Shown: positions 20,161 to 44,873 of the stretch, piece by piece
How positions within the stretch are numbered: position 1 is the first letter of the stretch
How the letters are laid out: every line of letters starts with the position of its first letter
Source of the DNA: an uncultured Oleispira sp.
GTDB taxonomy: Bacteria > Pseudomonadota > Gammaproteobacteria > Pseudomonadales > Oceanobacteraceae
Direction of reading: 5' to 3'
NCBI GenBank assembly: GCA_913019965.1
Contig: CAJVZR010000022.1
Location: forward strand, 1 to 54,782
DNA length: 54,782 bases
Program-made: the position numbers and the translations under genes
Notes under the pieces: generated by a model
Seen by the model: only the letters and a program-made list of their open reading frames with translations
Told to the model about the DNA's origin: nothing
The model's database searches: none

Positions 20161-21396
20161 TTAAGAAAGTCGCTGCTTAAAATCTTGATAGCCAAATTCT
20201 TTCACAACTTTTATTTCGTCTGTTTCAGAATTCCATAGCGCTAATGATGGTAAGCCTATGCCATTGAAAGTTGAGGTTTTTACCATAGTATAATGGCTCA
20301 TATCATCGAACATTAAGCGCTGACCAATCTCTAATGCTTGATCAAAGCTATAATCACCCATCACATCACCGGCTAAGCAGGTTTGACCACCAAGGCGATA
20401 GGTATGTTGTTTTTCACCCTTCTCCCCTGCTGCATTCTTAGATGCCAAATCGATCACTTCTGCTCGGTATGGCATTTCTAAGGTATCGGGCATGTGGCAG
20501 GTTGCGCTGGTATCAAGTATTGCGAGATCCATTTGGTTGTAACCTAGATCTAATACTTCACTCACGAGCACACCGGTATGAATAGCGATGGCTTCGCCAG
20601 GTTCTAAATAAACTTGTACATCGTATTTTTGTTGGAAGGCTTTTACTCGTGCGATTAACTTATCCACATCATAATCAGGATGAGTTATATGATGGCCACC
20701 ACCAAAGTTTACCCAGTCCACTTTATGAAGGTATTCGCCAAATTGTGCTTCTACCGCGGTTAGGGTTCTGTCCAGAGGTTCAAATAGCTGTTCGCACAAA
20801 GTATGAAAATGTAAGCCTGTGATACCAGTAGCGATTAAATCATCGGCAGTTGGTACGTTTTGCTTAAAGGTATCGAATGGAATACCTAAACGAGAACCCG
20901 CTGCACAAGGGTCGTAAATCTCGGCAGCACCTTCTGAGTGCATTGGATTTATGCGTAAGCCAAAATCTAAAGCTGGGCGCTGCGCTTTCGCTTTTTTGAT
21001 TAATGGCTGAAATCGTTGCCATTGATTAAAGGAATTGAAAACGATGTGATCACTGAAAGTTAATAACTCTTCTAAATCAGGTTCAGTGAAGGCGGCAGAA
21101 AATACGTGTACCTCCCTATGGTCACTACCTTTTTTATTGCCACCAAATTCCTCATATCCCAATAAAGCTTCGTGTAATCCACTGGAGCAAGTACCCGATA
21201 AATATTTGCTAATTAAAGGAGCGAGTGAAAACATGGAAAACGCTTTCAAAGCCAGCAAAACCTTTGCTCCGGATTCCTGCTGAACTCGGTTAAGAATTTT
21301 GAGGTTATTCTCAATTGCTACTTCGTCCACTACAAAACAAGGGCTTGGAACGCGGACAGGATCAAAATTAAAAAAGGTTTTGCTATTAATACTCAC
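20161..21396 (-). CDS. nspC: Carboxy(nor)spermidine decarboxylase, copy 1
   Basis: A PLP-dependent decarboxylase of the alanine racemase-like fold III, 411 aa, which removes CO2 from carboxyspermidine or carboxynorspermidine to give spermidine or norspermidine. Lys51 (LLALKAF) is the PLP lysine, FGGGHH the phosphate-binding loop, YLEPGEA the substrate-side motif and GQTCLAGD carries the active-site cysteine. Start is GTG with AGAGA upstream. The matching dehydrogenase lies 220 bp upstream on the same strand, but a 137-bp palindromic element separates them. The protein is clearly different in sequence from the second copy in the siderophore operon and is the better candidate for the housekeeping enzyme. 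Confidence 0.9.
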   Translation of the reverse strand: MSINSKTFFNFDPVRVPSPCFVVDEVAIENNLKILNRVQQESGAKVLLALKAFSMFSLAPLISKYLSGTCSSGLHEALLGYEEFGGNKKGSDHREVHVFSAAFTEPDLEELLTFSDHIVFNSFNQWQRFQPLIKKAKAQRPALDFGLRINPMHSEGAAEIYDPCAAGSRLGIPFDTFKQNVPTADDLIATGITGLHFHTLCEQLFEPLDRTLTAVEAQFGEYLHKVDWVNFGGGHHITHPDYDVDKLIARVKAFQQKYDVQVYLEPGEAIAIHTGVLVSEVLDLGYNQMDLAILDTSATCHMPDTLEMPYRAEVIDLASKNAAGEKGEKQHTYRLGGQTCLAGDVMGDYSFDQALEIGQRLMFDDMSHYTMVKTSTFNGIGLPSLALWNSETDEIKVVKEFGYQDFKQRLS

Positions 21397-21449
21397 GTTA
21401 ATCTCTTTTATCAGCAGGAATATAAATATTTAATCTAAAAAGGCGTTAG

Positions 21450-21586
21450 CTTCCGCGGTTCGATATTGAGTGTATCGTTTAAGACCGTCAGATCCCATGG
21501 AAGGGATCTACGAGCCTACAGGGAGAGCGAAGCGACGTATTCACGGCGTGTCGCAAAAGGATATACTCAATGTCGATCCGCGGAAG
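21450..21586. repeat. 137-bp MITE- or REP-like palindromic element
   Basis: Terminal 27-bp inverted repeats with three mismatches (left 21450-21476, right 21560-21586, both beginning CTTCCGCGG when read inward) enclose a small hairpin (AGATCCC/GGGATCT, 21490-21509) and a G/C-richer core containing GAGCCTACAGGG and CACGGCGTGTC. Similar cores are, from memory, scattered in genomes of marine gammaproteobacteria. No target duplication is obvious and no second copy was seen in this window. Confidence 0.7.
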
Positions 21587-21616: not shown

Positions 21617-22825
21617 TTAAATTAACTCAAACCCAGGCTCTTCAATCACCTTAAACGGCAAACCATATTTATTCATGCCTTCCATGAATGGATCTGGGTC
21701 CATCTGCTCGATATTCCAAACACCATCCTGCATCCACTTGCCTTCTACCATCATCTTGGCACCGATCATGGCCGGTACACCTGTGGTATAAGAAATGGCT
21801 TGCGACTGCACTTCACCATAACAATCTTGGTGATCTTTGATGTTATAAACGTAAACCGTTTTTTCTTTGCCATCTTTAATGCCACGTACTACACAACCAA
21901 TACAAGTCTTACCGTGAGTACGAGGGCCAAGAGTTGATGGGTCTGGCAATAGCTCTTTCAGCAATTGAATCGGTACAATCTTTTGGCCATTGAACTCAAT
22001 CGGCTCAATGCCCGTCATGCCAACATTCTGGAGAACTTCTAGATGCTTAAGGTAACTATCACCAAAGCTCATCCAGAATTGCGCACGCTTAATCGTTGGG
22101 TAGTGCTTGGTTAGCGACTCTAGTTCTTCATGGTACATGCGGTAAATATTAAAAGAACCGACACCATCAGGACAGGTAAATTCTTGCTTAGTCGACATGG
22201 CTGGTGTTTCAACAAATTCACCGTTTTCCCAATGGCGACATTCTGCGGTCACTTCACGAATATTAATCTCAGGATTAAAGTTTGTCGCAAACGGGTAGCC
22301 ATGGTCGCCACCATTAACATCGATGATGTCTAGGTAATGAATTTCATCAAAATAATGCTTCGCCGCATACGCAGTAAACATATTGGTCGCGCCCGGATCA
22401 AAGCCTGACCCTAATAGCGCCATCAAGCCCGCTTTCTCAAACTTTTCTTGATACGCCCACTGCCAGTGATACTCAAACTTCGCAGTATCTAATGGCTCAT
22501 AGTTAGCGGTATCCAAATAATGAACACCCGCTTCTAAGCACGCGTCCATAATCGTGAGGTCTTGATAAGGCAAAGCTACGTTAATAACCATGAAGGGCTG
22601 TTCAACGTTCAATAGCGCAACCAGTTCTGGCACATTATCCGCATCGACTTGCGCTGTCGCAATATCGCGGTTATGAGTTTCTTTAACCTGCTTAGCAATG
22701 GCAATGCACTTAGATTCTGTACGGCTTGCTAATACAATTTCAGAGAATACTTCAGGCAGCTGAGCACATTTATGCACAACTACTTGGCCAACGCCACCGG
22801 CGCCAATAATCATTACTTTTTTCAT
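21617..22825 (-). CDS. Carboxy(nor)spermidine dehydrogenase, copy 1
   Basis: A 402-aa saccharopine dehydrogenase-like enzyme that joins a diamine (putrescine or diaminopropane) to aspartate beta-semialdehyde and reduces the imine with NADPH. The N-terminus IIGAGGVGQVV is the Rossmann nucleotide-binding loop; LGSGFDPG and GKTCIGCVVRG are family-typical motifs. It pairs with copy 1 of the decarboxylase downstream. Its 107-bp upstream gap holds four 14-bp tandem repeats, so it probably has its own transcription or translation control, apart from the siderophore operon upstream. Confidence 0.9.
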   Translation of the reverse strand: MKKVMIIGAGGVGQVVVHKCAQLPEVFSEIVLASRTESKCIAIAKQVKETHNRDIATAQVDADNVPELVALLNVEQPFMVINVALPYQDLTIMDACLEAGVHYLDTANYEPLDTAKFEYHWQWAYQEKFEKAGLMALLGSGFDPGATNMFTAYAAKHYFDEIHYLDIIDVNGGDHGYPFATNFNPEINIREVTAECRHWENGEFVETPAMSTKQEFTCPDGVGSFNIYRMYHEELESLTKHYPTIKRAQFWMSFGDSYLKHLEVLQNVGMTGIEPIEFNGQKIVPIQLLKELLPDPSTLGPRTHGKTCIGCVVRGIKDGKEKTVYVYNIKDHQDCYGEVQSQAISYTTGVPAMIGAKMMVEGKWMQDGVWNIEQMDPDPFMEGMNKYGLPFKVIEEPGFELI

Positions 22826-22832
22826 GTTAAAC

Positions 22833-22888: not shown

Positions 22889-22932
22889 CATGAATCTGTG
22901 TTCTATTATCCGACATTTTATCTTATTTAAGA

Positions 22933-24195
22933 TTAAGCGTATAACACTCTGTTAGCTGGGCTATCATTGTCAGCGCTTAAGTCACAAACCTCTGTAGAAA
23001 TACCCATTTCAGCTAGGCGCTCAAAGAACGGGATAGGATCTAGCTCTTCCACGTTGACCATGCCTTTAACATCCCATTCACCACTGGCAATCAGCTTAGC
23101 AGCAGCAACCGGAGGCACACCCGCCGTGAATGCGATGGCTTGAGAATCAATATCCGCATAAGTCACTTCGTGATCACAGATATTATAGACAAGCAGCTCT
23201 TTATCTTGGCCATCGCGCTTACCTTTAATCAAGGTGCCAATACAGGTCTTTCCCTTGTATCTAGGCGCTAGACTAGCAGGATCTGGCAAGCAGGCTTTCA
23301 AGGTATGCAACGGCACAACTTTATCGCCGTTATTGGTGGTCACTGTTTCGTGATTCAATAAGCCCACTTTCTCAAATACTTCTAAGCAATTTAAGTAATG
23401 ATCACCGAACCCCATCCAGAAGCGAACCGTTTCAACACCTGGAATATTCTGAGATAACGAGTGTACTTCATCGTGTCCCATCAGATACAACTTGTGCTCA
23501 CCAACTTCAGGGAAATCGTATTTCATCGAACGGCTGTGGTGTGGATAAGTACGCCATTGGCCATCTTCTAAACAACCCGCATCTTCAATGATTTCACGCA
23601 GGTTAATTTCAGGGTCGAAATTAGTAGAGAAATAATGGCCATGATCGCCATCGTTCACATCCATAATATCGATGCTTTCGATGGAGTCGAATTCGTGCTT
23701 TTGTGCGTAAGCGCAATAAGCGTTGACAACACCTGGATCAAAACCACTGCCTAGAATAGCCGTTACACCCTTTTCTTTGCACAGCTCGCGCTTTTTCCAT
23801 TCGTAATTGGCATACCATGGATACGGAGCATTCATCACGCTGTAATCTTCATGAACCGCAGTATCGATATAAGCCGCTCCGGTTTCTAAACAAGCATCAA
23901 GAATATTCATGTTTACGAATACAGTGCAGACGTTGATAACGATCTGGCTTTCGGTTGATCGAATTAAATCAACCAAGTCATCGGTATTATCGGCATTAAC
24001 TTCACGGCTATAAAATTGAAAGCCTTCTACCGCTTGATGATTCTTTTTATTCACTGAATCGATTATGGCATCACACTTAGCAACATTTTTAGATGCTAAA
24101 CACACTGATGCAAATACATCGCTACTTTGTGCACACTTATGAGCAACGACTGCGCCTACTGCGCCAGCTCCAATAATGAGTACGTTCTTTTTCAT
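22933..24195 (-). CDS. Carboxy(nor)spermidine dehydrogenase, copy 2 (siderophore operon)
   Basis: A 420-aa paralogue of the neighbouring dehydrogenase, with IIGAGAVGAVV as nucleotide loop, LGSGFDPG and GKTCIGTLIKG. It is somewhat longer at the C-terminus (about 15 extra residues, ending NRVLYA) and clearly diverged from copy 1. It is the last gene of the siderophore operon, 58 bp after the decarboxylase copy 2, with a good ribosome binding site (GGGGA). Expected reaction is putrescine plus aspartate beta-semialdehyde to carboxyspermidine; the presence of arginine-to-putrescine genes in the same island favours spermidine over norspermidine. Product identity is inference. Confidence 0.88.
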   Translation of the reverse strand: MKKNVLIIGAGAVGAVVAHKCAQSSDVFASVCLASKNVAKCDAIIDSVNKKNHQAVEGFQFYSREVNADNTDDLVDLIRSTESQIVINVCTVFVNMNILDACLETGAAYIDTAVHEDYSVMNAPYPWYANYEWKKRELCKEKGVTAILGSGFDPGVVNAYCAYAQKHEFDSIESIDIMDVNDGDHGHYFSTNFDPEINLREIIEDAGCLEDGQWRTYPHHSRSMKYDFPEVGEHKLYLMGHDEVHSLSQNIPGVETVRFWMGFGDHYLNCLEVFEKVGLLNHETVTTNNGDKVVPLHTLKACLPDPASLAPRYKGKTCIGTLIKGKRDGQDKELLVYNICDHEVTYADIDSQAIAFTAGVPPVAAAKLIASGEWDVKGMVNVEELDPIPFFERLAEMGISTEVCDLSADNDSPANRVLYA

Positions 24196-24253: not shown

Positions 24254-25399
24254 TCAAGATAAGAAGTCTCGAAAATCTTCGTAATCAAACTCGCGAATGA
24301 CGCGGGTTTCTCCATCAATATTTTTATGGCAAATGGCTGGCATCTTGATGCCATTAAAGAAGTTTTTCTTCACCATGGAATAACCCGCCACATCGGTGAA
24401 TTTCAACTCATCGCCAATTTCAATATTTCGATCAAACACATAGGTTCCGAATACATCACCGGCCAAACAGGTACGGCCACTCACTCGATAAACAGACTTG
24501 CCCTCTCGAAGTGCTTCATCAATATCGTCTTCGGAAATTTCTTCAGCGCCTTCTAAATCAGGCAAAAACTGATAGACCAAGACATCCAATAAATGTGTTT
24601 CAACACCTGCATCGACGATCAAGGTTGGTAATTTGTTTTCAACCTTGTCTAATACCTTCACCACAAGAGACGTTGATTGAGTTACTGATGCTTCGCCGGG
24701 CTCTAGGTAAACTTGTAGGTCGTACCTATTCGCCAATAACTTTAAGCGTTCACATAAAGCATCCAATGGATAACCGTCACTGGTAAAGGCAACACCACCG
24801 CCTAAACTCAACCAGCTCAAGTTAGGTAAAATCGTAGCGAAACGATGTTCGATGGCATCCAGTTGCTGGCTAAGACTGATAAAGTCATCGTTTTCACAAT
24901 TCATATGAAACATCGCGCCATCGATGACATCAGTAATCTTGTCAGGCAATAAGTCGTAGCGAACACCTAAGCGAGAATATTTTGCAACCGTATTACTTAA
25001 ACCGTATTCGGAATGACCTACTTCTGGGTTTAGCCTCAAGCCAATAGATCGATCCTTCTCTTGAACCTGCGCTTTGTATTGCTCTAATTGATTAAGCGAA
25101 TTGAAAATAACCTTGTCGCAGTACTCAACGATTTCAGGCATTTCATCGTCACTAAAAGCCACGCTATAACCATGAGTTTCACCGGCGAATTTTTCATGAC
25201 CTAAGCGCGCTTCATATAAGCTGCTGCTCGTAGTGCCTGCCATATAGTCCTTCATAAAATCAAAGGCGCACCAGCTGGAAAAACATTTCAAGGCGAGAAC
25301 ACTCTTGGCGCCGCTACGCTCACTGACATAAGCGATGCGTTCCATCGCTTTTAACATACGGGTTTCGTCAATGAGATAATAAGGTGTGCTCATCTTCAT
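24254..25399 (-). CDS. nspC: Carboxy(nor)spermidine decarboxylase, copy 2 (siderophore operon)
   Basis: A 381-aa fold-III PLP decarboxylase, shorter than copy 1. Lys38 (VLALKCF) is the PLP lysine, SLGGGVAF the phosphate loop, YLEPGEA and GRTCLAGD the other active-site motifs. Its start codon overlaps the asbF stop by four bases (ATGA), which is strong evidence for co-expression with petrobactin-type genes. Expected product is spermidine, the backbone polyamine of petrobactin. The central segment around residues 255-290 is acidic (SEDDIDEALREGK) and differs from copy 1. An ATG two codons further in is an alternative start. Confidence 0.9.
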   Translation of the reverse strand: MKMSTPYYLIDETRMLKAMERIAYVSERSGAKSVLALKCFSSWCAFDFMKDYMAGTTSSSLYEARLGHEKFAGETHGYSVAFSDDEMPEIVEYCDKVIFNSLNQLEQYKAQVQEKDRSIGLRLNPEVGHSEYGLSNTVAKYSRLGVRYDLLPDKITDVIDGAMFHMNCENDDFISLSQQLDAIEHRFATILPNLSWLSLGGGVAFTSDGYPLDALCERLKLLANRYDLQVYLEPGEASVTQSTSLVVKVLDKVENKLPTLIVDAGVETHLLDVLVYQFLPDLEGAEEISEDDIDEALREGKSVYRVSGRTCLAGDVFGTYVFDRNIEIGDELKFTDVAGYSMVKKNFFNGIKMPAICHKNIDGETRVIREFDYEDFRDFLS

Positions 25400-26259
25400 A
25401 ACATTAGCTCTGGCTGGGACTGCTGAAGAAAATCGGATTCCAGTTTAGCTAGCGCTTTACGATCATTATCCAGTGTCGCAAACACATCGTGACCAAACCA
25501 TTCCAACGAGGCATCCATGTTTTGCCACGGGATACTGGACTCTTTCATCAGGTAAGCTAGAAACTGTTTGAAATCATATTCACCTTTAAACAAAGGTGTC
25601 ATACCAACACGGCTACCCGCGGGTGCATAAACATTACCCGGGCTAAAAACATCCAGAAGATGACGTTGAGTAATATTTTTAAAATGCATGTGCTGAATTA
25701 AAGGCGCGAGCTGATCAAGCGCAAAGATCGGATCACTGCCCATTTCCCAAACATGAATCACATCAAAGTTAATCCGTAATGCTGGATGATTAACTTCTTC
25801 AATCAACTTGAGAGTCGATTCCAAGGTATCTGCTAATGTATTCGGGTGGGTTTCAACAATCAGATCGATGCCAAAATCCGCTGCTACCTTGCAATATTCA
25901 CGCAAGCGCTGTGTACAAGCAGCGCGCTCCGCTACATCCATGCCTGCACTGGGTTTATTACCCGAGAAAGTACGCAGTTTTTTAGCCCCCCAAGAACGTG
26001 TAATCGTGCATAACGATTTGGCACCTTCTAGTGAACTGGCGAGGTCTCCGTCTAAAGGTAGATAATCGCTGACCATGGAAACGGACAAACCTTTTTCAGC
26101 CAGACTCTCTGGGGTGAAATCAGAAGACTGATATAAGTTCTTAGCATGAACTCCCCACAGTTCAATCGCGTCAAACTGATGCGCTTTTGCCCAATTGGCA
26201 ATGCGCTCCAATGAAATCAATTGGTGTCGGAAAGAAATGGTGCATACGGAATATTTCAC
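25396..26259 (-). CDS. asbF: 3-dehydroshikimate dehydratase AsbF
   Basis: A 287-aa TIM-barrel enzyme of the xylose isomerase-like/AP endonuclease 2 superfamily that converts 3-dehydroshikimate to 3,4-dihydroxybenzoate, the catechol of petrobactin. The N-terminus KYSVCTISFRHQLIS and segments ELWGVHAKNLY, VETHPNTLADTL, HMHFKN and SLEWFGHD match Bacillus anthracis AsbF as I remember it, including the metal-binding Glu and His residues. It overlaps the upstream asbDE gene and the downstream decarboxylase gene by four bases each. This gene sets the locus apart from 2,3-dihydroxybenzoate or hydroxamate NIS siderophore loci. Confidence 0.93.
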   Translation of the reverse strand: MKYSVCTISFRHQLISLERIANWAKAHQFDAIELWGVHAKNLYQSSDFTPESLAEKGLSVSMVSDYLPLDGDLASSLEGAKSLCTITRSWGAKKLRTFSGNKPSAGMDVAERAACTQRLREYCKVAADFGIDLIVETHPNTLADTLESTLKLIEEVNHPALRINFDVIHVWEMGSDPIFALDQLAPLIQHMHFKNITQRHLLDVFSPGNVYAPAGSRVGMTPLFKGEYDFKQFLAYLMKESSIPWQNMDASLEWFGHDVFATLDNDRKALAKLESDFLQQSQPELML

Positions 26260-27613: not shown

Positions 27614-28864
27614 TTATGCTAATGCCAGAGCCTTGCGACTCACCTTTCCGTTAGGTAAGCGCTCAATATTTTCAACTTGAGTAATTTGAATCGGCACTTG
27701 ATATTTGTTCAGATATTGACTGCACCAGCTGCGGATCTTGTCGTCAGCAATTTCTTGATCTGCAACAAACTGCAAACACACTTGATCATTGCCAAACGCG
27801 TGGCTCTTTTTGAATACCACTGCATCGCTAATGCTTGGCATCTCCATAACCACTTTTTCAACTTCAGCGGGGTAAACATTGAGCCCAGAAACATTAATCA
27901 TTTCATCGATGCGAGAAATAAAATGAAGGCGGTTATTACCATCTAAGAAACCTAAGTCACGGGTTGAAATCAGAGTATTATTTTCTGTAGTCACGATGAT
28001 TTCTTCTAGTGCTTCGGACGAAGATCCAGACGTTACCGTTAGATGTGGCAATGGCACACCCTGATCATGAATGGACTTAATATCGCCCCCGAGGGCAATA
28101 CAACCGACTTCCGAACAACCATACTGTTGGTATAACTTTTCACATTTATTCGCGGCTTGTGCTAGCCAGGTCGCTTGCATTAACGTGCCCGAAGTCATGA
28201 TGGCATGAATAGGCTGGTCTGCTTTAACCATCATAGTGATAGTCGTAATCAATGCAGGAGATGAATATAAAATAGGAGAAGCTGTTTCTCGTACTTTATT
28301 AATAATGTATTTCGGATTGAAGTTGGTAATAATTACCGGCTCTGAGCCACGCTTGATACTGGCTAAAATACCGCAGATCAATCCATAAGAATGGTTCACC
28401 GGACAGGCAACGACCGCGGTCATCTGCGCTAGATCCGTAAAGTGCTCAATATAATTGTGTAATTCGATATCAATGCTAACCCAGGTACGATCAATACACT
28501 TTGGCTCACCGGTTGTACCTGAACTCATTTGTACTAATACAGGCTCGATATCATTTTCGTGATCACTGATCTGTTCAATTTTTGCTAGCAGCTCTTCCAT
28601 TGAATCGGCCATTACTTGGTAATGACTAGCGCTGAGTTTTGCTCGGCGGCGCAATGCTTCTTCTGGAGTACCAGCCGGCAAAGGGAAGACAGATATTCCG
28701 TGATCACGAGCATAAAGACATAATGCAATCCACAGGGCAGCATCACTGATACAAGCTGTAATGCGCTTACCCTGACAGCTTCCTAATACGTTATGCTGCT
28801 TGAACTGTTGGTAACACTGCTCAAAATAGTTTTTATCGAAATGTTGATCATTAAGGTAAATCAT
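27614..28864 (-). CDS. asbC: 3,4-dihydroxybenzoate-AMP ligase AsbC
   Basis: A 416-aa adenylate-forming enzyme that activates 3,4-dihydroxybenzoate with ATP and loads it on the carrier domain. Motifs: MSSGTTGEPK (A3 loop), STRDLGFLD (A7), RIDEMINVSGLNVYPAEVE (A8 hinge) and LPNGKVSRKAL with the catalytic lysine (A10). It is shorter than usual aryl-AMP ligases (about 500 aa), as is AsbC of Bacillus. Start lies two bases after the asbB stop with AAAGG in the asbB end as ribosome binding site, so it is translationally coupled. Confidence 0.9.
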   Translation of the reverse strand: MIYLNDQHFDKNYFEQCYQQFKQHNVLGSCQGKRITACISDAALWIALCLYARDHGISVFPLPAGTPEEALRRRAKLSASHYQVMADSMEELLAKIEQISDHENDIEPVLVQMSSGTTGEPKCIDRTWVSIDIELHNYIEHFTDLAQMTAVVACPVNHSYGLICGILASIKRGSEPVIITNFNPKYIINKVRETASPILYSSPALITTITMMVKADQPIHAIMTSGTLMQATWLAQAANKCEKLYQQYGCSEVGCIALGGDIKSIHDQGVPLPHLTVTSGSSSEALEEIIVTTENNTLISTRDLGFLDGNNRLHFISRIDEMINVSGLNVYPAEVEKVVMEMPSISDAVVFKKSHAFGNDQVCLQFVADQEIADDKIRSWCSQYLNKYQVPIQITQVENIERLPNGKVSRKALALA

Positions 28865-28866
28865 AT

Positions 28867-32949: not shown

Positions 32950-34308
32950 TTATCCAATGGATTTTTTAAGCAGTAATGCTGGTCGATAATTTATGAAGAA
33001 GATCACAGCAAATAGAAATGCAAAGGCTTCCGCTACAGGGACTGCGTATAAAAAACCAATACCAGGAAGCAAAAAACTGAGTAACAATACAAAACTTATG
33101 GGTAGAATTAATGAGCGTAACATAGCAATAATACTCGAATGAAGTGCCTGCTCAGCTGAGGTAAGGTATGCACAAATAAGCACATTAAAACCGTTAAACA
33201 AAAAGATCGGCCAGACAATATGTAAAAAGTTCTGAGCTAATTGCTGAGCCTGCTTCGCATCATCCTCAAGAAAAAGACCAACAATTGTACTTTCAAAAAG
33301 ATGCAGCATGGCCACCAGCACAATACTCAAGGTCGCTATCGATACTGCAGCGATACGCATAAATGCCTTAACCCGATCAATGCGCTGAGCTCCAAAATTT
33401 TGCCCTAATAAAACATGCATAGCGTCAATAATGCCGTAATACACCATTAGACTAATATAAATGAGATAATTCACCACACTAAATGCCGCAATTCCCTCCA
33501 CCCCACTTTGCCTACTAATAACCCAGTGAAAAACCAGAATCACTAAACCAATTGAAAATTCATTAATAAATTCAGAAAAGCCGTTAAAGGCGCTATAGCC
33601 CAATTCTTTAAAATTAAAAGCAGGCCAGTATAATTTGAGATTATTTCGACCTGAAAAAAAGTAGCTTGAGATATAAAGCAGCTGTATTACCTGAGCAATT
33701 AACGTCGCCCAGGCCGCCCCTTCAACCCCCCAACCTAGCTTACCAATGAAGAGCGCATCAAGGGCAATATTAATTAAGGCACCCAGCATTAATGCACGCA
33801 TACCCAACTCTGGCCGATTATCAGCACGAATGAAATAGTACATTACTAAGCAAGCCAATTGCACAATCGTTACGAAACAAAAGATTTCAAAATAGCTTTG
33901 CATCAAAGGGTAAATCGAAGAATCCGCTCCCAGAGCAGCAAATAGGTAATTGCTGAATATAAGCGACAAGGGAATAGCTAATATCACCATCGCCAGTACC
34001 ACAAAGAAAATCTGACTAAATAAAGAGGATGCTGAAGCATATTGTTTCTCGCCGATATGAATACTGGCTTTGACTGAACCACCGACTGCGAACATCAAGG
34101 CGATACCAAACAATAATGCAAAGTACGGCATCAACAGGTTAACCGCAGCTAGCGCATCAGCACCTAAATAATTACCAATAAAGAAACCATCCACAATACT
34201 GGCGGTAGAGATTGCCAGTAAACTTAATGTCGAAGGAATAACAAAACGAAAAAAAGTGGCTATGATAGGTCCACTTTCTGGAGAAGTATTGGATGTATTT
34301 TTACTCAT
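32950..34308 (-). CDS. MATE-family multidrug/siderophore efflux protein
   Basis: A 452-aa polytopic inner-membrane protein with twelve hydrophobic helices and two MATE repeats (SIVDGFFIGNYLG in helix 1-2; LMYYFIRADN-like VMYYFIRADNRPE; GALINIALDALFI). Families of this type (MepA/DinF branch) export cationic compounds with a Na+ or H+ gradient. In this context it is a candidate exporter of the finished siderophore or of polyamine. ATG at 34308 with AAGAGAT upstream is chosen over TTG at 34323. It is the third gene of a unit with speA and a phosphopantetheinyl transferase. Petrobactin export in Bacillus anthracis uses an RND-type protein, so this would be a different solution. Confidence 0.88.
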   Translation of the reverse strand: MSKNTSNTSPESGPIIATFFRFVIPSTLSLLAISTASIVDGFFIGNYLGADALAAVNLLMPYFALLFGIALMFAVGGSVKASIHIGEKQYASASSLFSQIFFVVLAMVILAIPLSLIFSNYLFAALGADSSIYPLMQSYFEIFCFVTIVQLACLVMYYFIRADNRPELGMRALMLGALINIALDALFIGKLGWGVEGAAWATLIAQVIQLLYISSYFFSGRNNLKLYWPAFNFKELGYSAFNGFSEFINEFSIGLVILVFHWVISRQSGVEGIAAFSVVNYLIYISLMVYYGIIDAMHVLLGQNFGAQRIDRVKAFMRIAAVSIATLSIVLVAMLHLFESTIVGLFLEDDAKQAQQLAQNFLHIVWPIFLFNGFNVLICAYLTSAEQALHSSIIAMLRSLILPISFVLLLSFLLPGIGFLYAVPVAEAFAFLFAVIFFINYRPALLLKKSIG

Positions 34309-34356
34309 AATATCTCTTAACAATTTTTATAACGATTTCAAAAAATATAATTTAAA

Positions 34357-37220: not shown

Positions 37221-37230
37221 ATGAGCGAAT

Positions 37231-37249
37231 GATAATGGTTAGCATTTAG
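37231..37249. promoter_or_regulatory. Fur-box-like site, speA side
   Basis: GATAATGGTTAGCATTTAG matches the Fur consensus at 13 of 19 positions by eye. It lies about 120 bp upstream of the speA start and probably controls the minus-strand unit. Confidence 0.65.
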
Positions 37250-37309: not shown

Positions 37310-37328
37310 GCAATTGATAATCATTATT
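37310..37328. promoter_or_regulatory. Fur-box-like site, acyltransferase/aguA side
   Basis: GCAATTGATAATCATTATT matches the Fur consensus at 15 of 19 positions by eye, with an intact GATAATCATTAT core. It covers the -35 element of the plus-strand promoter, the classic position for Fur repression. Confidence 0.8.
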
Positions 37329-37342
37329 ATTCGTGACATAAT
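37314..37342 (+). promoter_or_regulatory. Sigma70-like promoter for the acyltransferase-aguA-aguB-sip unit
   Basis: TTGATA (-35, 37314-37319), 17-base spacer and CATAAT (-10, 37337-37342). It overlaps the better of the two Fur-box-like sites. It implies a leader of about 125 bases before the ATG at 37474. Confidence 0.6.
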
Positions 37343-37473: not shown

Positions 37474-38733
37474 ATGAATGCTTCCCTGCCACGAAATCCC
37501 CAAGTGCTGGATACTAGCCAATCAAGAATCAAAGTCTTAGATTTCTATCGAGGAATTTGTGTCATGTTTATGCCTTTGGTACATTTTTTTTATTTTTATG
37601 GGACTGCCGACTTTACCGAAAGCCCAATCGGCTTATCATTTGAATTGCTAACGATCTGGATCGCAGCAACGATTTATTTATCATCCGTACTCATTCTATT
37701 AACGCCAAAAGCAACCGGTACCCAGAATCTCAAACGCATATTAATTCTTTTCGTCATCGGCTATGCCCTAATATTAGGTTGTGTGCACGGACTCGAATAC
37801 CAAGTAGAAATGACCCATGAAGTATTACTCGGAAGTGTTTGCTGCTTCGTCTTTTTAATGGGAATCTTTATCGCTTTAGCTGGAAGCAAAAATTTATCAC
37901 TGTCGATTAAAAGAGGCTTATTATTATTTTTAGCAGGCTATGCTCTGAATTTCTTCCGCAGCTCACTTCCTATGTGGCTTTCATTGGAATTCGGCCTAGT
38001 CACTCAAGAGGAATTAGGAGACGGCAATCCAATCTATGAATTGTTAGTGGTTGATATTCTACAATTTGCGGGCATTGCCTTTATTATCTGTAGCCTGATA
38101 CGTCACTACCTGCCTAATCCAAAATATTGGCTGGCCATCGCACTTGGCCTTGCTTTCGTTTCGCCCTACGCCTGGGACACTCATACAGGGAATGTTTTCG
38201 CCAATGAAATACTTAAGCTGCTTGCAGGAAATATTGCGGAAGGTGCTTTCTTTCCACAGCTTCCATGGTTAGCTTATGCCATTTCGGGTATGGCATTTGG
38301 CCACTGGATGAAGCATGCTGATGATTTAAATGGCTTTTTAAAGAAGTCTGCCTGGTTTAGTCTCGCGGCCACATTAGCGGGTATTTCTATTATCTTTACC
38401 AATGTTGATTATCATAGCGGAGATTCCATGCGCGCTGGTCCCGGTGCCGTTATTGCGATCAGTGGATTCACCGCTCTTACAATTTTCTTATTTCATGTGA
38501 TTGTCGAAAAAGTACCTCACAATCCGGTATTCGACTTTTGGTACTTGTGGAGCAAGCACATTACAACCATATACGTTGTTCATTGGTTATTAATTGGCTG
38601 GGGGCTCATGTATTTTGGCTTCCGTACTCTAAGTGGAACAGGCTTCTTGGTGACTTTGCTAGCCCTCTATATACTGACTCACTTCCTATCAACTGGTTGG
38701 GTTAGATTTAAACCTAATCAGAATAAACAATAG
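37474..38733 (+). CDS. Acyltransferase-like polytopic membrane protein (DUF1624/HGSNAT-like)
   Basis: A 419-aa membrane protein with about ten hydrophobic helices. The start SRIKVLDFYRGICVMFMPLVHFF has the R-x-x-x-x-D-x-x-RG plus late His pattern of the DUF1624/heparan-glucosaminide acetyltransferase-like group. Those proteins transfer acyl groups across a membrane, but the substrate here is unknown. ATG with GAGGAT upstream. First gene of the plus-strand unit with aguA (21-bp gap), aguB and a siderophore-interacting protein, behind a Fur-box-like site. A role in siderophore or polyamine acylation or transport is inference. It is not closely similar to the DUF418 protein at the other end of the unit, although both begin with D-x-x-RG. 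Confidence 0.55.
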   Translation: MNASLPRNPQVLDTSQSRIKVLDFYRGICVMFMPLVHFFYFYGTADFTESPIGLSFELLTIWIAATIYLSSVLILLTPKATGTQNLKRILILFVIGYALILGCVHGLEYQVEMTHEVLLGSVCCFVFLMGIFIALAGSKNLSLSIKRGLLLFLAGYALNFFRSSLPMWLSLEFGLVTQEELGDGNPIYELLVVDILQFAGIAFIICSLIRHYLPNPKYWLAIALGLAFVSPYAWDTHTGNVFANEILKLLAGNIAEGAFFPQLPWLAYAISGMAFGHWMKHADDLNGFLKKSAWFSLAATLAGISIIFTNVDYHSGDSMRAGPGAVIAISGFTALTIFLFHVIVEKVPHNPVFDFWYLWSKHITTIYVVHWLLIGWGLMYFGFRTLSGTGFLVTLLALYILTHFLSTGWVRFKPNQNKQ

Positions 38734-38754
38734 CTCAGCATCAAGGGTGTTATT

Positions 38755-39777
38755 ATGACTTTCCGCTTACCGCCAGAATGGTATCCACAAGATGCTGTGA
38801 TGCTGACTTGGCCCCATGCAGATACCGACTGGGCTCCCTACCTGAATGAAGTAGAGCCCGTATACATTGAAATTGCCAGCCAGATATTAAAGCGCCAGTC
38901 TTTAGTAGTAATCTGCCATAACAAGGTAGTTCAAACCCATATTCAAGCACTTTTAAATCATGACCAGCTCTATACCTTTGTCATTCCCTGCAACGATACT
39001 TGGGCAAGGGATCATGGCCCAATCACACTCGTCAATGAACAAAAACATACCCAGTTATTGGATTTTGTTTTTAATGGCTGGGGCAATAAATACGAGTCTT
39101 CGCTGGATAATGCGATTAATAAAAGCTTATTAAAGCAGCCAACAATACAAGCTTCATATGAAGCCGTTAATCTAGTTCTGGAAGGCGGTGGTATTGAAGT
39201 TGATGATAATGGCCACTTATTAACCACAGAGCAATGTTTACTAAACCCAAATCGCAACCCTAAATACTCTCGTGAGAAAATTGAGTTTGAACTTAAACAG
39301 CGCTTACAATGCCAAAAAGTACTGTGGTTAAAACATGGTTATTTAGCGGGCGATGATACCGATTCCCATATCGATACCTTGGCTCGGCTTGCTCCACATA
39401 ACACCATAACGTATGTGCAGTGTTCTGATGAGAATGACGAACACTTTGATGAATTAAATAAAATGGAACAAGAGCTTAAAGCTCTGCGTACCTGCGATAA
39501 CGAGGCATTCAATTTAATTCCATTGCCCATGCCGATTGCTTGCTTTAACCAAGAAGGTGAGCGTCTACCCGCCACTTATGCTAACTTTCTAATAATTAAT
39601 GGTGCAGTACTACTGCCAACATATCGCCAATCAGAAATGGATAACCGAGCTTTAACTCAAATTGAAAAAGTATTTCCGCAGCACGACATTATTACCGTAG
39701 ATTGTCTGCCACTTATCCAACAATTTGGCAGTTTACATTGCATCAGCATGCAGTTACCCCAGGGATTCTTATTATGA
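38755..39777 (+). CDS. aguA: Agmatine deiminase
   Basis: A 340-aa enzyme of the guanidino-group-modifying (peptidylarginine deiminase-like) superfamily: agmatine plus water to N-carbamoylputrescine and ammonia. Motifs in order: DTWARDHGP (Asp), VLEGGGIEVD, GDDTDSHIDTLAR (catalytic His) and GSLHCISMQ (nucleophile Cys329). Its stop overlaps the aguB start by four bases (ATGA), so the two successive enzymes are translationally coupled. It uses the agmatine made by the speA gene transcribed in the opposite direction 1.6 kb away. Confidence 0.95.
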   Translation: MTFRLPPEWYPQDAVMLTWPHADTDWAPYLNEVEPVYIEIASQILKRQSLVVICHNKVVQTHIQALLNHDQLYTFVIPCNDTWARDHGPITLVNEQKHTQLLDFVFNGWGNKYESSLDNAINKSLLKQPTIQASYEAVNLVLEGGGIEVDDNGHLLTTEQCLLNPNRNPKYSREKIEFELKQRLQCQKVLWLKHGYLAGDDTDSHIDTLARLAPHNTITYVQCSDENDEHFDELNKMEQELKALRTCDNEAFNLIPLPMPIACFNQEGERLPATYANFLIINGAVLLPTYRQSEMDNRALTQIEKVFPQHDIITVDCLPLIQQFGSLHCISMQLPQGFLL

Positions 39778-40682
39778 CAACGACACTTAAAACAGCGTTA
39801 GTTCAACAAAGTAAATCGGCTGATTTAAACAAGAATTTTACCGACAGCTTAAATGCTATCCGTCAAGCAGCCGAGGCAGGAGCAAAGCTGATTGTATTAC
39901 AAGAACTGCACCGTTCGTTGTATTTTTGCCAGCAAGAAGAGGTTGATGCTTTCGATTTGGCAGAGTCCATTCCCGGCCCATCTACCAACACCTTAGGGGA
40001 ATTAGCGAAATCACTTAATGTGGTTATAGTTGCATCGCTGTTCGAAAAGCGTGCTGCAGGTTTATACCACAATACTGCCGTAGTATTGGATGCAGATGGC
40101 AGTATTGCCGGCAAGTATCGCAAGATGCATATCCCAGATGACCCTGGCTTTTACGAGAAATTTTATTTCACTCCTGGAGATATCGGCTTCGAGCCGATTC
40201 AAACCCGCGTGGGTAAATTAGGCGTGCTGGTTTGTTGGGATCAATGGTTTCCGGAAGCGGCTCGCTTAATGGCATTAGCGGGAGCAGAAGTATTAATTTA
40301 TCCAACAGCCATTGGTTGGGACCCTCGCGACGATGCCGCAGAGCAGAAGCGCCAACTTGATGCTTGGGTAATCAGTCAGCGCGCCCACGCTGTGGCGAAC
40401 GGCGTCCCTGTACTTAGCTGTAACCGAGTAGGTCATGAAGTGGATCCAGGGCCAAATGGCGAAATAAACAAAGCGGGGCCCGGCATCAATTTTTGGGGAC
40501 ACAGTTTTATTACTGGACCTCAGGGTGAGTTTTTAGCCGTGGCCAGTGAAGACAAAGAAGAAATTCTTTTCGCCGATGTGGATTTAAATCACAGCGAAAA
40601 TGTACGCCGTATCTGGCCATTTATGCGCGATCGTCGTATTGATCATTATCAGGACCTGATGAAAATTTATCGTGATGACTGA
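39774..40682 (+). CDS. aguB: N-carbamoylputrescine amidase
   Basis: A 302-aa nitrilase-superfamily enzyme that hydrolyses N-carbamoylputrescine to putrescine, CO2 and ammonia. The catalytic triad is visible as Glu44 (LQELH), Lys117 (YRKMHIPDD) and Cys154 (VCWDQWFPEA). The true start is the ATG overlapping the aguA stop; a longer reading frame starting inside aguA is not supported. Completes the arginine-to-putrescine route begun by SpeA and AguA. Putrescine is the acceptor for the carboxyspermidine dehydrogenases encoded on the other strand. Confidence 0.95.
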   Translation: MTTTLKTALVQQSKSADLNKNFTDSLNAIRQAAEAGAKLIVLQELHRSLYFCQQEEVDAFDLAESIPGPSTNTLGELAKSLNVVIVASLFEKRAAGLYHNTAVVLDADGSIAGKYRKMHIPDDPGFYEKFYFTPGDIGFEPIQTRVGKLGVLVCWDQWFPEAARLMALAGAEVLIYPTAIGWDPRDDAAEQKRQLDAWVISQRAHAVANGVPVLSCNRVGHEVDPGPNGEINKAGPGINFWGHSFITGPQGEFLAVASEDKEEILFADVDLNHSENVRRIWPFMRDRRIDHYQDLMKIYRDD

Positions 40683-41516: not shown

Positions 41517-41540
41517 TCTCACAGCCCCGCGTAAAATTGA

Positions 41541-42647: not shown

Positions 42648-42959
42648 CCTTTATTTCTCATCCTTATTACTTCCAGAAATTGATTCTACTTTTTCACTCA
42701 CCGTATAATATATCGATTGAACGTCGATATTTTTTTTGCTCAAAATCCATAAACGCAATTGAGAATCATTACTATCTATAAGTAAGAGAAGATTGTCAAT
42801 AACAATCAAGAAAATGCAGTTCCAAGGATGCCAGAACAGGCGTTATGATCGGCAGATCATGCTTAAAGCGAATAATTTAGTCGTTAGTATGAGTCGTTGA
42901 AGGAAGACATATAATTCCCCCCCCGAGAACTGATTGAAGCACCTTTCTAAGAAGCCGAA
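42648..42959. other. 312-bp intergenic region between DUF418 and speA copy 1
   Basis: Holds the Fur-box-like site listed separately, a small inverted repeat GATTGT/ACAATC (42791-42807) and TGATC/GATCA (near 42848). I see no gene in it. Confidence 0.6.
42755..42773 (-). promoter_or_regulatory. Fur-box-like site before the DUF418 gene
   Basis: GCAATTGAGAATCATTACT matches the Fur consensus at 13 of 19 positions by eye and shares GCAATTGA.AATCATTA with the site at 37310. Confidence 0.65.
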
Positions 42960-44873
42960 CTATTCATCTCGTTCGTAATAGGTATAACCTTGCATGCTTG
43001 CATAAAAGGTTTTCAAAATTTCTTGTCTTTCACGGGCGGTAATACGCCCTTCTTTCACAGCTCGCTCTGCGGTATTTCGATACGCTACGTACATGTCTTT
43101 AGGATCATATTCAACGTAGCTTAGAACATCGGAAATAGTATCACCGTGAATTTCTTTAACAAAATCGAAACTGCCATCGTCATTTAAACGCACACTGACA
43201 ACATTGGTATCACCAAATAAATTATGCAAGTCACCTAAAGTTTCTTGGTACGCCCCCACCAGAAAAACACCGAGATAATATTCTTCATTATCTTTCATTT
43301 CATGTAACGGTAAGGTATTTGAAACTTCGTGCTGGCCGATGAACTTATCAATTTTACCATCACAGTCACAGGTGATATCAGCAATAATCGCATTACGCTT
43401 AGGCTCTTCATCCAAACGATGAATAGGCATAATTGGGAACAACTGATCGATCGCCCAAATATCCGGCAGCGATTGAAATAAACTAAAGTTACCGTAATAA
43501 ATATCGGCTAACGATTCTTTCAGTCCTTCAAGGTCAACGGGAATGCGTTCCATCAATTCGATCGTTTTATTGATCTGCTGTAAGATTTCTAAAAATAAAT
43601 TTTCTGCTGCTGAGCGCGTTCTTAAATCAACTTGGCCACGCTTAAATAACTCTCGGATTTCATCGCGATAAAAATGGGCATCGTTATAACATTCTTGAAC
43701 TCGTTGAGATTCTAAGTAGGTTAAAACCTCTCGCATATCTTGCAGTAACTGGTGCTCGTCACTTTCTACTTTGGGTAGCTCAATAGGTTCAAACTTAGTT
43801 ACATCAAGCACATTGAAAAGCAAAACCGATGAATAGGCGACGGTCGCTCGACCTGACTCCGTTACTATCGTTGGATGCTCAATATCATACTCATCGAGTG
43901 TATTTTTAAGCGTATCGACTATGTCTTCGCAATATTCTTCTAGGGTGTAATTACGGCTTTGTGAATCGTTGGAACGAGCACCGGTATAATCCACCGCTAA
44001 GCCACCGCCAAAATCAATATGGCTCAACGCAGCGCCTTCAGCACTTAAGTCCGCATAATAACGACAGGCCTCTACAACACCACTGCGTATTTCTCGAATA
44101 TTGGGAATTTGAGAACCAAGGTGGCAATGCAATAGTTGCAAACAATGCAGCATTTCTGCTTCTTTTAAACGATCAACCAATTGAATTAACTGACTGGTTG
44201 ATAGACCAAAAACACTGCGATCACCGGAAGTTGAATTCCAATGCCCGCTAACTTTTGAGGTCATCTTCACACGTACACCGATTAACGGCTCGATATTTAG
44301 CTGCTTACTACGTTCGATTATTATTGGTAGCTCTGCAGGCGTTTCGATAACGAAGAAACATTTAAAACCTAGCTTAACAGCTTGTAAGCCTAGCTCGACA
44401 AACTCTTGGTCTTTGTAGCCATTACAAATGATTAAACTACCTGGCTCGGTCAGAGTTGAAAGCGCAGCAATCATCTCGGGCTTACTACCCACTTCTAAAC
44501 CGTGCTGAAAGCGTGCACCAAAATCGGCAATTTCTTCTACAACTTGCGCTTGCTGATTTACTTTAATCGGATAGACACCACGATACGGCGATTGATAATC
44601 GAGTTTTGCAATGGCTTCGCTAAAGGCATTATTTAATCGATAGATTTGAGCATCGAGAATATTTTCAATACGTAGCAAAACCGGCATCTGTAAGTCACGC
44701 TCAGTCATGCCTTTTACAATATCCATCAAAGGTACTTGAGTAGTCAGTGTTTTAGCCGTGACTAACCCCTGGTCAGATAAACCAAAATAATCGTTACCCC
44801 AATGCTCAATACCATACACGTCGGCAGAGCGACTGGCTGACCAAGAAGTATCTTTAATGGATTGCTTATTCAA
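42960..44873 (-). CDS. speA: Biosynthetic arginine decarboxylase, second copy
   Basis: A 637-aa paralogue of the siderophore-linked SpeA, with PLP Lys104 (YPIKVNQQAQ), FGGGLAVDY and CDCDGKID. Long identical blocks with the other copy (for example LHCLQLLHCHLGSQIPNIR) show recent or conserved duplication; the differences are concentrated at the N-terminus and around residues 370-460. It lies alone, downstream of greA, with no convincing Fur box upstream, and is therefore the better candidate for the housekeeping enzyme. The start has no strong ribosome binding site. Confidence 0.93.
   Translation of the reverse strand: MNKQSIKDTSWSASRSADVYGIEHWGNDYFGLSDQGLVTAKTLTTQVPLMDIVKGMTERDLQMPVLLRIENILDAQIYRLNNAFSEAIAKLDYQSPYRGVYPIKVNQQAQVVEEIADFGARFQHGLEVGSKPEMIAALSTLTEPGSLIICNGYKDQEFVELGLQAVKLGFKCFFVIETPAELPIIIERSKQLNIEPLIGVRVKMTSKVSGHWNSTSGDRSVFGLSTSQLIQLVDRLKEAEMLHCLQLLHCHLGSQIPNIREIRSGVVEACRYYADLSAEGAALSHIDFGGGLAVDYTGARSNDSQSRNYTLEEYCEDIVDTLKNTLDEYDIEHPTIVTESGRATVAYSSVLLFNVLDVTKFEPIELPKVESDEHQLLQDMREVLTYLESQRVQECYNDAHFYRDEIRELFKRGQVDLRTRSAAENLFLEILQQINKTIELMERIPVDLEGLKESLADIYYGNFSLFQSLPDIWAIDQLFPIMPIHRLDEEPKRNAIIADITCDCDGKIDKFIGQHEVSNTLPLHEMKDNEEYYLGVFLVGAYQETLGDLHNLFGDTNVVSVRLNDDGSFDFVKEIHGDTISDVLSYVEYDPKDMYVAYRNTAERAVKEGRITARERQEILKTFYASMQGYTYYERDE

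What the first reader, a model, noticed from the sequence alone, without database searches (positions are those of the whole stretch)
20161..44873. A self-contained arginine-to-petrobactin island with its own spermidine supply
The window encodes SpeA, AguA and AguB (arginine to putrescine), carboxyspermidine dehydrogenase and decarboxylase (putrescine to spermidine using aspartate semialdehyde), AsbA, AsbB, AsbC, fused AsbDE and AsbF (spermidine, citrate and dehydroshikimate to a petrobactin-type siderophore), a phosphopantetheinyl transferase, a MATE exporter and an SIP reductase. Known petrobactin loci, as I recall them, take spermidine from general metabolism. Here the whole supply chain is linked physically and by Fur-box-like sites.
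Basis: partly seen in the sequence, partly recalled or inferred. Interest (0 to 1): 0.93.

Follow-up and report, generated by a model that had tools for sequence, protein, structure and literature searches.

The report
Petrobactin island with own spermidine line
This bacterium's gene island for a petrobactin-type iron-scavenging molecule carries its own set of genes predicted to make the building block spermidine from arginine; in this assembly it stands between genes that form one spermidine operon in related genomes, and the agmatinase gene that those relatives keep was not found, so the cell would likely depend on the siderophore island for that step.

Summary
The window has a petrobactin-type cluster (AsbA, B, C, DE, F, PPTase, MATE, SIP) with SpeA, AguA, AguB, carboxyspermidine dehydrogenase (CASDH) and decarboxylase (CASDC), but SpeA, CASDH and CASDC each occur twice. 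Comparison with 43 family genomes separates the sets. The outer copies (SpeA1, CASDH1, CASDC1) are the genus's housekeeping operon. SpeA2, AguAB, CASDC2 and CASDH2 belong to the asb island, which lies 1.9 Mb from that operon in the complete sister genome G021. In trees, asb-linked CASDC2 and CASDH2 form their own clades across Gammaproteobacteria, Myxococcota and Verrucomicrobiota. Two Fur-like sites between the divergent SpeA2 and AguAB operons are conserved in 4 of 4 family carriers. In the window the island stands between SpeA1 and CASDH1, and agmatinase, present in 5 of 5 other genomes of the genus, was not found, so island AguAB is the only agmatine-to-putrescine route found. The general idea is not new: PMC7989816 (2019) reported arginine decarboxylase, CASDH, CASDC and agmatinase in a roseobacter petrobactin-like cluster. 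This is a second, separately assembled version. Product, transcripts and enzyme activities were not tested.

The parts
22933..24195 (-). CASDH2, island carboxyspermidine dehydrogenase
   Evidence: NF043000 480 bits, below cut-off 800; asb-linked clade 100/99; same side of the CASDH tree as Paracoccus denitrificans and Sinorhizobium
24254..25399 (-). CASDC2, island carboxyspermidine decarboxylase
   Evidence: TIGR01047 416 bits, over cut-off 409; asb-linked clade 100/98; aligns with 3mt1 over residues 3-380
25396..26259 (-). AsbF, 3-dehydroshikimate dehydratase-like
   Evidence: 3dx5 named AsbF, 242 bits
26256..27551 (-). AsbDE, fused aryl carrier protein and DUF6005 ligase-like domain
   Evidence: PF19468 452 bits; D40-S41 of the carrier part invariant in 28 aligned sequences
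27614..28864 (-). AsbC, adenylating enzyme
   Evidence: NF006167 502 bits, cut-off 513
28867..30840 (-). AsbB, NIS synthetase
   Evidence: 3to3 named AsbB, 307 bits
30815..32713 (-). AsbA, NIS synthetase
   Evidence: PF04183 and PF06276; next to AsbB in most of the asb loci compared
32950..34323 (-). MATE exporter, candidate siderophore exporter
   Evidence: PF01554
34357..35178 (-). 4'-phosphopantetheinyl transferase, candidate activator of AsbD
   Evidence: PF01648
35181..37112 (-). SpeA2, island arginine decarboxylase, first gene of the asb run
   Evidence: TIGR01273 721 bits, over cut-off; asb-linked clade
37225..37249 (.). Fur-like site 1 (two overlapping 14/19 matches)
   Evidence: aligned sites in G021, G003, G002 score up to 12-13/19
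37310..37334 (.). Fur-like site 2 (15/19 and overlapping 14/19)
   Evidence: aligned sites in G021, G003, G002 score 14/19
37474..38733 (+). HGSNAT-like membrane acyltransferase, first gene of the AguAB run
   Evidence: PF07786
38755..39777 (+). AguA, agmatine deiminase-like
   Evidence: PF04371 394 bits; TIGR03380 213 bits, below cut-off 382; only PF04371 match in G000
39702..40682 (+). AguB, N-carbamoylputrescine amidase-like (start codon uncertain)
   Evidence: TIGR03381 304 bits, below cut-off 410; 5h8i named N-carbamoylputrescine amidohydrolase, 251 bits
40749..41516 (+). SIP, ferric-siderophore reductase-like
   Evidence: PF04954 and PF08021
41541..42647 (-). DUF418 membrane protein at the island edge; Fur-like site 42755-42773 upstream (13/19)
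   Evidence: PF04235; aligned site in G021 scores 17/19
42960..44873 (-). SpeA1, housekeeping arginine decarboxylase
   Evidence: next to CASDH1-CASDC1 in G021, G022, G023
21617..22825 (-). CASDH1, housekeeping
   Evidence: groups with housekeeping CASDH1 of G021, G022, G023, G025
20161..21396 (-). CASDC1, housekeeping
   Evidence: groups with housekeeping CASDC1 of G021, G022, G023, G025
14088..14578 (.). stretch between DEAD helicase and nitroreductase genes where G021 and G022 carry agmatinase (SpeB); no SpeB here

Best explanation
Window 22933-42647 is a petrobactin-type siderophore island whose own SpeA2, AguA, AguB, CASDH2 and CASDC2 genes are predicted to make the spermidine linker from arginine, likely under Fur control. 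Inferred flow: SpeA2 makes agmatine, AguA and AguB turn it into putrescine, CASDH2 joins putrescine to aspartate semialdehyde, CASDC2 decarboxylates the product to spermidine, AsbF makes 3,4-dihydroxybenzoate, AsbC loads it on the PPTase-activated carrier domain of AsbDE, and AsbA, AsbB and AsbE join two arms to citrate; MATE would export it and SIP would release the iron. Shown by sequence: the genes, their order, their separate ancestry from the housekeeping copies, and the conserved Fur-like sites. Also shown for this assembly: the island lies between housekeeping SpeA1 and CASDH1, and agmatinase was not found. Inferred from that: the island's AguAB now serves the whole cell. Inferred from kinship: CASDH2 is of the putrescine-using type, while the housekeeping set (with agmatinase in relatives) may work from agmatine.
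For: Separate loci in the complete sister genome G021: housekeeping SpeA1-CASDH1-CASDC1 at 0.775-0.779 Mb, island at 2.674-2.692 Mb. Three other g1 genomes without asb (G022, G023, G025) have the housekeeping trio and no CASDC2, CASDH2 or SpeA2. G002 and G003 carry the island and AdoMet decarboxylase, and the only CASDH and CASDC genes found in them are in the island. Trees: the 9 CASDC2-type asb-linked rows share a clade (100/98) that holds none of 34 unlinked rows; 9 asb-linked CASDH2 rows likewise, with none of 21 unlinked rows (100/99). Agaribacterium has SpeA-CASDH-PPTase-MATE-AsbA-B-C-DE-F-CASDC2-AguA-AguB-SIP on one strand. Close genes: AsbDE/AsbF overlap 4 bp, AsbF/CASDC2 overlap 4 bp, CASDC2/CASDH2 58 bp apart. 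Two Fur-like sites conserved in 4 of 4 family carriers. AsbDE and CASDC2 protein hits share the exact longest-contig length in 38 of 120 cases against 0.84 expected after jitter. Agmatinase: 5 of 5 other g1 genomes, none found in G000, none in the stretch where G021 and G022 have it. No PF00282 decarboxylase found in G000.
Against: No product, transcript or enzyme assay. AguA, AguB and CASDH score below curated cut-offs. Only 7 of 80 named asb loci have linked CASDC/CASDH, 4 of 80 SpeA and 1 of 80 AguA/AguB, so the Myxococcota and Verrucomicrobiota loci share only the last two steps. Agaribacterium lacks CASDH2 and has only a CASDH1-type enzyme, which does not fit a strict putrescine/agmatine split. 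AguA is not confined to carriers: G023, without asb, has one. Fur-like matches of 13/19 also lie upstream of SpeA1 in G000 and G025. In Marinagarivorans (L012) CASDC2 and CASDH2 are interrupted frames. G000 is 94% complete in 160 contigs, so an agmatinase elsewhere is possible, and a misjoin cannot be excluded without reads. The agmatinase protein query had no positive control; the family search did. An E. coli-type ornithine decarboxylase, another putrescine source, was not searched for in G000.
Confidence: 0.78

Rival explanations
1. The polyamine genes are ordinary housekeeping genes that happen to lie beside asb, and the siderophore draws on the general spermidine pool.
For: SpeA1, CASDH1 and CASDC1 in the window are housekeeping copies; 73 of 80 named asb loci show no linked CASDC/CASDH over half-length in the stretch held.
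Against: A second, differently rooted set travels with asb, is 1.9 Mb from the housekeeping set in G021, overlaps AsbF, and is the only carboxyspermidine route found in G002 and G003.
Confidence: 0.07
2. The island makes a different polyamine (for instance norspermidine, or spermine/thermospermine made by a promiscuous CASDH2), and the product is a petrobactin analogue.
For: PMC8776838 (passages) discusses a norspermidine petrobactin analogue in seawater; PMC11999265 (sections 10-13) shows that the P. denitrificans type of CASDH also aminopropylates spermidine, and CASDH2 falls on that side of the tree.
Against: AguA and AguB point to putrescine; no PF00282 decarboxylase (the family of diaminobutyrate decarboxylase, recalled) found in G000; no homospermidine synthase among the 40 window proteins scanned.
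Confidence: 0.15
3. The island is real, but its place inside the housekeeping operon and the absent agmatinase are faults of a fragmented assembly.
For: The genome has 160 contigs at 94% completeness and the window is a whole contig; in G021 the island lies elsewhere. One junction holds a short degenerate repeat.
Against: The only direct repeats of 30 bases or more found between 20161 and 44995 are the two SpeA genes, at most 74% alike with no exact match over 19 bases, so no near-identical repeat spans a junction. Both insert ends resemble G021's island ends, and agmatinase is missing between genes that flank it in G021 and G022, on the same contig.
Confidence: 0.12

Closest known systems
Petrobactin (asb) NIS siderophore clusters, e.g. 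Alteromonas and Marinobacter (PMC8776838)
   Same: AsbA, AsbB, AsbC, AsbD/E and AsbF homologues; HGSNAT-like genes near the cluster in three Alteromonas loci (L017, L051, L074)
   Different: The figure legend seen names asb genes, a PepSY gene and two hypothetical genes, no spermidine genes (passage); here five spermidine steps, a PPTase and SIP are in the island
Roseobacter petrobactin-like clusters with SpeA, CASDH, CASDC and agmatinase (Epibacterium ulvae, PMC7989816; Leisingera plasmid L247; Tateyamaria L080)
   Same: Arginine-to-spermidine genes inside an asb cluster
   Different: They have agmatinase and, in the two loci examined, CASDH of the CASDH1 side (Tateyamaria also CASDC of the CASDC1 side); the island has AguA/AguB and CASDH2/CASDC2 of another clade
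Rhodopetrobactin and methylolanthanin clusters (PMC11317620, PMC13251462)
   Same: asb-type synthetases with fused AsbDE; polyamine linker
   Different: The linker is acetylated homospermidine; the gene table seen lists no spermidine-supply genes (passages)
NIS clusters that carry their own amine precursor gene (recalled: DesA/DfoJ lysine decarboxylase in desferrioxamine clusters, SbnA/B/G in staphyloferrin B)
   Same: Dedicated precursor supply in the cluster
   Different: Few steps there, five from arginine here; this comparison is recalled, not from a call

Membership tests
Petrobactin-type (asb) NIS siderophore cluster | Two NIS synthetases (AsbA, AsbB) | tested here: met
   PF04183 and PF06276 in both; AsbB to 3to3 at 307 bits
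Petrobactin-type (asb) NIS siderophore cluster | AsbC, AsbD, AsbE and AsbF for 3,4-dihydroxybenzoate | tested here: met
   AsbC just below and AsbD below the strict NCBIfam cut-offs
Petrobactin-type (asb) NIS siderophore cluster | Product is citrate with two dihydroxybenzoyl-spermidine arms | not testable with these tools
   needs mass spectrometry
Roseobacter type of spermidine-supplying asb cluster (PMC7989816) | SpeA, CASDH and CASDC in the cluster | tested here: met
Roseobacter type of spermidine-supplying asb cluster (PMC7989816) | Agmatinase in the cluster | tested here: not met
   AguA and AguB instead; no agmatinase found in G000
Roseobacter type of spermidine-supplying asb cluster (PMC7989816) | CASDC and CASDH of the same lineage as Tateyamaria (both genes) and Leisingera (CASDH) | tested here: not met
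   CASDC2 and CASDH2 fall in other clades; the Epibacterium sequences themselves were not fetched
Fur regulon | Fur-box-like operator at the promoter, conserved among relatives | tested here: met
   15/19 and 14/19 matches, aligned sites of 12-14/19 in the 3 other family carriers
Fur regulon | Fur binding and iron-dependent transcription | not testable with these tools
   needs binding assay and transcripts
Putrescine-type CASDH (P. denitrificans, A. tumefaciens) | Sequence groups with enzymes shown to use putrescine | tested here: met
   CASDH2 with Paracoccus and Sinorhizobium, 100/100 split from CASDH1; enzyme data from PMC11999265; that the Paracoccus row is the assayed enzyme was not checked
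Putrescine-type CASDH (P. denitrificans, A. tumefaciens) | Uses putrescine in an assay | not testable with these tools
   needs coexpression in a spermidine-void E. coli strain

The most novel reading that the evidence does not exclude
A siderophore island has taken over a step of the host's core polyamine metabolism: it entered the housekeeping spermidine operon, the cell's agmatinase was lost, and the whole cell now makes putrescine (and hence spermidine) through the island's Fur-controlled AguA and AguB, so that iron would set the polyamine level. The island also brings a putrescine-based spermidine chemistry beside the host's agmatine-based one, and its last two steps (CASDC2-CASDH2) have spread with asb across Gammaproteobacteria, Myxococcota and Verrucomicrobiota.
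Probability: 0.3. Interest if true: 0.75.

Novelty: new variant of a known kind. Interest (0 to 1): 0.56.

Why it matters
Which polyamine is at hand has been proposed to decide which petrobactin form marine bacteria release (PMC8776838, passages). A cluster that carries its own five-step spermidine line would make the product independent of the host's polyamine type, which may help it work in hosts with different polyamine chemistry. If the island really replaced agmatinase, it is a clear case of a specialised-metabolism island capturing a primary pathway, and it predicts iron-dependent polyamine levels, which are easy to measure.

Tried and rejected
Rejected: (1) a single polyamine set in the window: the two sets differ in position, tree and neighbours. 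(2) Recent tandem duplication of CASDC and CASDH: copies are 35% and 43% identical. (3) CASDH1 of the window as the moved island copy: it groups with housekeeping CASDH1, while the island's own second CASDH (beside SpeA2 in G021, G002, G003 and Agaribacterium) was not found here. (4) Norspermidine: no PF00282 gene found in G000. (5) SpeB remnant between the helicase and nitroreductase genes: none found. (6) Fur sites by score alone: the window has 35 places at 13/19 or more (17.2 expected, mean of 20 simulated sequences), 8 at 14 or more (2.45) and 2 at 15 or more (0.45, up to 4), one of those two inside SpeA1, so scores alone prove little. (7) The weak third CASDC-family match in G000 (C19) as an ornithine decarboxylase: it is LysA (477 bits, over cut-off). 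(8) Other E. coli polyamine genes (SpeB, SpeD, SpeE and the first 385 residues of SpeC as queries) near the 80 named loci: only agmatinase in L080. Homospermidine synthase was not sought with a model of its own; of the 10 commonest unassigned neighbour groups, one member each was scanned, and 8 gave Pfam matches, for receptor, transport or regulation.

Rows left out of counts: trees dropped second copies of the same genome's genes (CASDC: L125, L128; CASDH: L090, L093, and also L012, L124, L127, L195, L197-L199; SpeA: nine partial rows), identical sequences, and hits under 150 bits or 60% of query length, which removed the Marinagarivorans CASDC2. Window rows L004 and L005 were labelled by hand because their loci are cut short; genes beside MATE/PPTase only were counted as asb-linked; ten P rows in the CASDC tree have no known context and were not counted. 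Nineteen of the 80 named loci are shorter than 21 kb, so flanks are cut and 7 of 80 is a lower bound; partial pieces were sought by tblastn in 8 loci only, which added a 30-residue CASDC1-type piece at the end of L078. Only the best 80 of 208 confirmed relatives were kept. One of 120 CASDC2 rows lacked a contig length. G024 (71% complete) showed SpeA1 and agmatinase but no CASDH or CASDC match over 50 bits. On recheck the odds of the section on the most novel reading were lowered from 0.35 to 0.30, because E. coli-type ornithine decarboxylase was not searched for in G000 and the Myxococcota and Verrucomicrobiota loci share only the last two steps.

Literature: nine searches. Seen: PMC7989816 passages and section 8; PMC11999265 abstract, passages, sections 10-13; PMC7857480, PMC8776838, PMC13251462 and PMC11317620 passages. 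Other papers: search listing only.


Full report
What is there. The window is the whole contig C22 of a 4.32 Mb genome in 160 contigs, 94% complete. Between 20161 and 44873 lie two interleaved things. One is a petrobactin-type siderophore island: on the minus strand SpeA2, PPTase, MATE, AsbA, AsbB, AsbC, AsbDE, AsbF, CASDC2, CASDH2 (37112 down to 22933); on the plus strand, divergently, an HGSNAT-like acyltransferase, AguA, AguB and SIP (37474-41516); and a DUF418 gene (41541-42647). The other is SpeA1 (42960-44873) on one side and CASDH1-CASDC1 (22825 down to 20161) on the other.

Which copy is which. The family search covered 44 genomes, the window's own included. DUF6005 (AsbDE) occurs in 4 of 44: G000, G021 of the same genus, and G002 and G003. 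Protein matches tie G003 to a Bacterioplanoides record and G002 to a Saccharospirillaceae record, so the family is taken as Saccharospirillaceae. In the complete genome G021 the housekeeping trio SpeA1-CASDH1-CASDC1 lies at 774889-779464 and the asb island at about 2673801-2691776. G022, G023 and G025, without asb, have the trio and no CASDC2, CASDH2 or SpeA2. In these relatives the order is carA-carB-greA, about 5.5 kb, SpeA1-CASDH1-CASDC1; in G025 it is split over two contigs and carA was not in the stretch taken. In the window the order is carA-carB-greA-SpeA1, island, CASDH1-CASDC1: the island stands inside the trio. Its ends resemble the island ends of G021: DUF418 with its upstream region on one side, the end of CASDH2 on the other. 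The island's second CASDH, found beside SpeA2 in G021, G002, G003 and Agaribacterium, is absent here: only two CASDH genes were found in G000.

A dedicated line. In G002 and G003, which have AdoMet decarboxylase, the only CASDH and CASDC genes found are in the asb island. In the CASDC tree (54 rows) the 9 CASDC2-type asb-linked rows, from Gammaproteobacteria, Myxococcota and Verrucomicrobiota, sit in one clade (100/98) with none of the 34 unlinked rows; the window's CASDC1 sits with its genus. In the CASDH tree (35 rows) 9 asb-linked CASDH2 rows form a clade (100/99), and the SpeA2-linked second CASDH forms another (4 rows, 97/92). SpeA2 groups with asb-linked SpeA (5 rows, 99/98). Among 80 named asb loci, CASDC and/or CASDH of at least half length lie in the stretch held (at most 10 kb either side) in 7 (L010-L015 and L080), SpeA in 4 (L010, L011, L078, L080), AguA and AguB in 1 (L010). 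L010-L015 are the six best AsbDE matches of the list. So the complete set with AguAB is seen in the four family carriers and Agaribacterium, while the other five loci of the group share CASDC2 and/or CASDH2. A cruder check: 38 of the 120 best AsbDE protein hits share the exact longest-contig length with a CASDC2 hit, against a mean of 0.84 (maximum 6) after jitter. Agaribacterium haliotis has one co-directional run from SpeA (cut by the locus edge) to SIP, with one CASDH, of the CASDH1 side, and one CASDC.

Control by iron. The region between SpeA2 and the HGSNAT-AguA-AguB-SIP run holds two Fur-like sites, 37225-37249 and 37310-37334, best scores 14/19 and 15/19; aligned sites in G021, G003 and G002 score up to 12-13 and 14. 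Upstream of DUF418 lies a further Fur-like site, 42755-42773 (13/19), aligned with one of 17/19 in G021. Upstream of SpeA1 the best scores are 11 in G021, G022 and G023 and 13 in G025 and G000. The case rests on conservation and position, since such scores are common in the window as a whole. The consensus used is recalled. Whether the minus-strand run is one transcript is not shown: MATE and AsbA are 236 bp apart.

The capture of a housekeeping step. Agmatinase (TIGR01230) is found in 5 of 5 other genomes of the genus, but not in G000, G002 or G003. In G021 and G022 it lies between the DEAD helicase and the nitroreductase genes, and in G025 between CASDC1 and the nitroreductase gene. In the window the helicase and nitroreductase genes are there with 491 bases between them and no agmatinase remnant found; a protein query of the whole genome also found none (no positive control). 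AguA is single-copy in G000 and is the island copy; G023, without asb, also has an AguA. AdoMet decarboxylase was not found in G000. So in this assembly the only agmatine-to-putrescine route found runs through the siderophore island. That the whole cell depends on it is inferred, and hangs on a 94% complete draft and on the absence of ornithine decarboxylase, for which only the alanine-racemase-fold candidate was excluded (it is LysA).

Two chemistries. PMC11999265 (sections 10-13) shows that some CASDH enzymes use putrescine (P. denitrificans, A. tumefaciens), others agmatine, the latter in genomes with arginine decarboxylase, and that the dehydrogenase mainly sets the choice. CASDH2 falls with Paracoccus and Sinorhizobium (52.6 and 52.8% identity, against 39.2 and 40.5% for CASDH1), split 100/100 from the CASDH1 side, which includes a Monoglobus gene beside speB and speE. 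So the island may run a putrescine line (SpeA2, AguAB, CASDH2, CASDC2) while the housekeeping set, with agmatinase in relatives, may run through N1-aminopropylagmatine. Agaribacterium, with AguAB but only a CASDH1-type enzyme, does not fit this split cleanly.

What is known. The idea of spermidine genes in a petrobactin-like cluster is in print: PMC7989816 (2019, section 8) names arginine decarboxylase, carboxynorspermidine dehydrogenase and decarboxylase and agmatinase in Epibacterium ulvae and says they likely encode spermidine production, perhaps for the siderophore. The same set stands in Tateyamaria (L080) and on a Leisingera plasmid (L247). That version has agmatinase and other lineages of CASDH and CASDC, so the window's version was likely put together separately. 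In nine searches I saw no paper that describes the AguAB/CASDH2/CASDC2 version or its insertion into a housekeeping operon; this covers only the held open-licence library, and most listed papers were seen as listings only.

Verdict. A real, conserved, dedicated arginine-to-spermidine line in a petrobactin-type island: a new variant of a known kind. Product, regulation and enzyme specificities are predictions.

Noticed in passing
37474-38733 and 41541-42647: Two membrane proteins of acyltransferase-like families (PF07786, DUF418) sit in the island; PF07786-like genes also stand near asb in 7 of 80 named loci (L017, L051, L052, L057, L063, L074, L078), so they may modify the siderophore.
   Followed up: partly
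L012:12181-14299: Marinagarivorans algicola has CASDC2 and CASDH2 after AsbF, but both are interrupted frames (decay or sequencing error).
   Followed up: partly
L078:131-2029 and 16031-16120: Marinifaba aquimaris contig has SpeA at one end and a short CASDC1-type piece at the other, with asb between: possibly another asb insertion beside a housekeeping spermidine locus.
   Followed up: no
22826-22932: The CASDH2/CASDH1 junction holds a short degenerate repeat around TGAGTAG-like units, resembling the SpeA1 stop region of relatives; possibly an insertion scar.
   Followed up: partly
L191:11689-17751: In G021 the island is followed by two PepSY_TM genes and a TonB-plug receptor; no receptor is next to the island in the window.
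   Followed up: partly
L194:5146-10256: Five genes that look like LysR, ATP-grasp, AstE/AspA, a small protease-like protein and a magnesium transporter lie between greA and SpeA1 in G022 (only the AstE/AspA-like one was scanned); the window lacks them at that place.
   Followed up: no
3692-6472 and 7560-9681: An M60/IMPa-like metalloprotease gene and a lipase-like gene with a lipase chaperone gene lie in the left flank.
   Followed up: no
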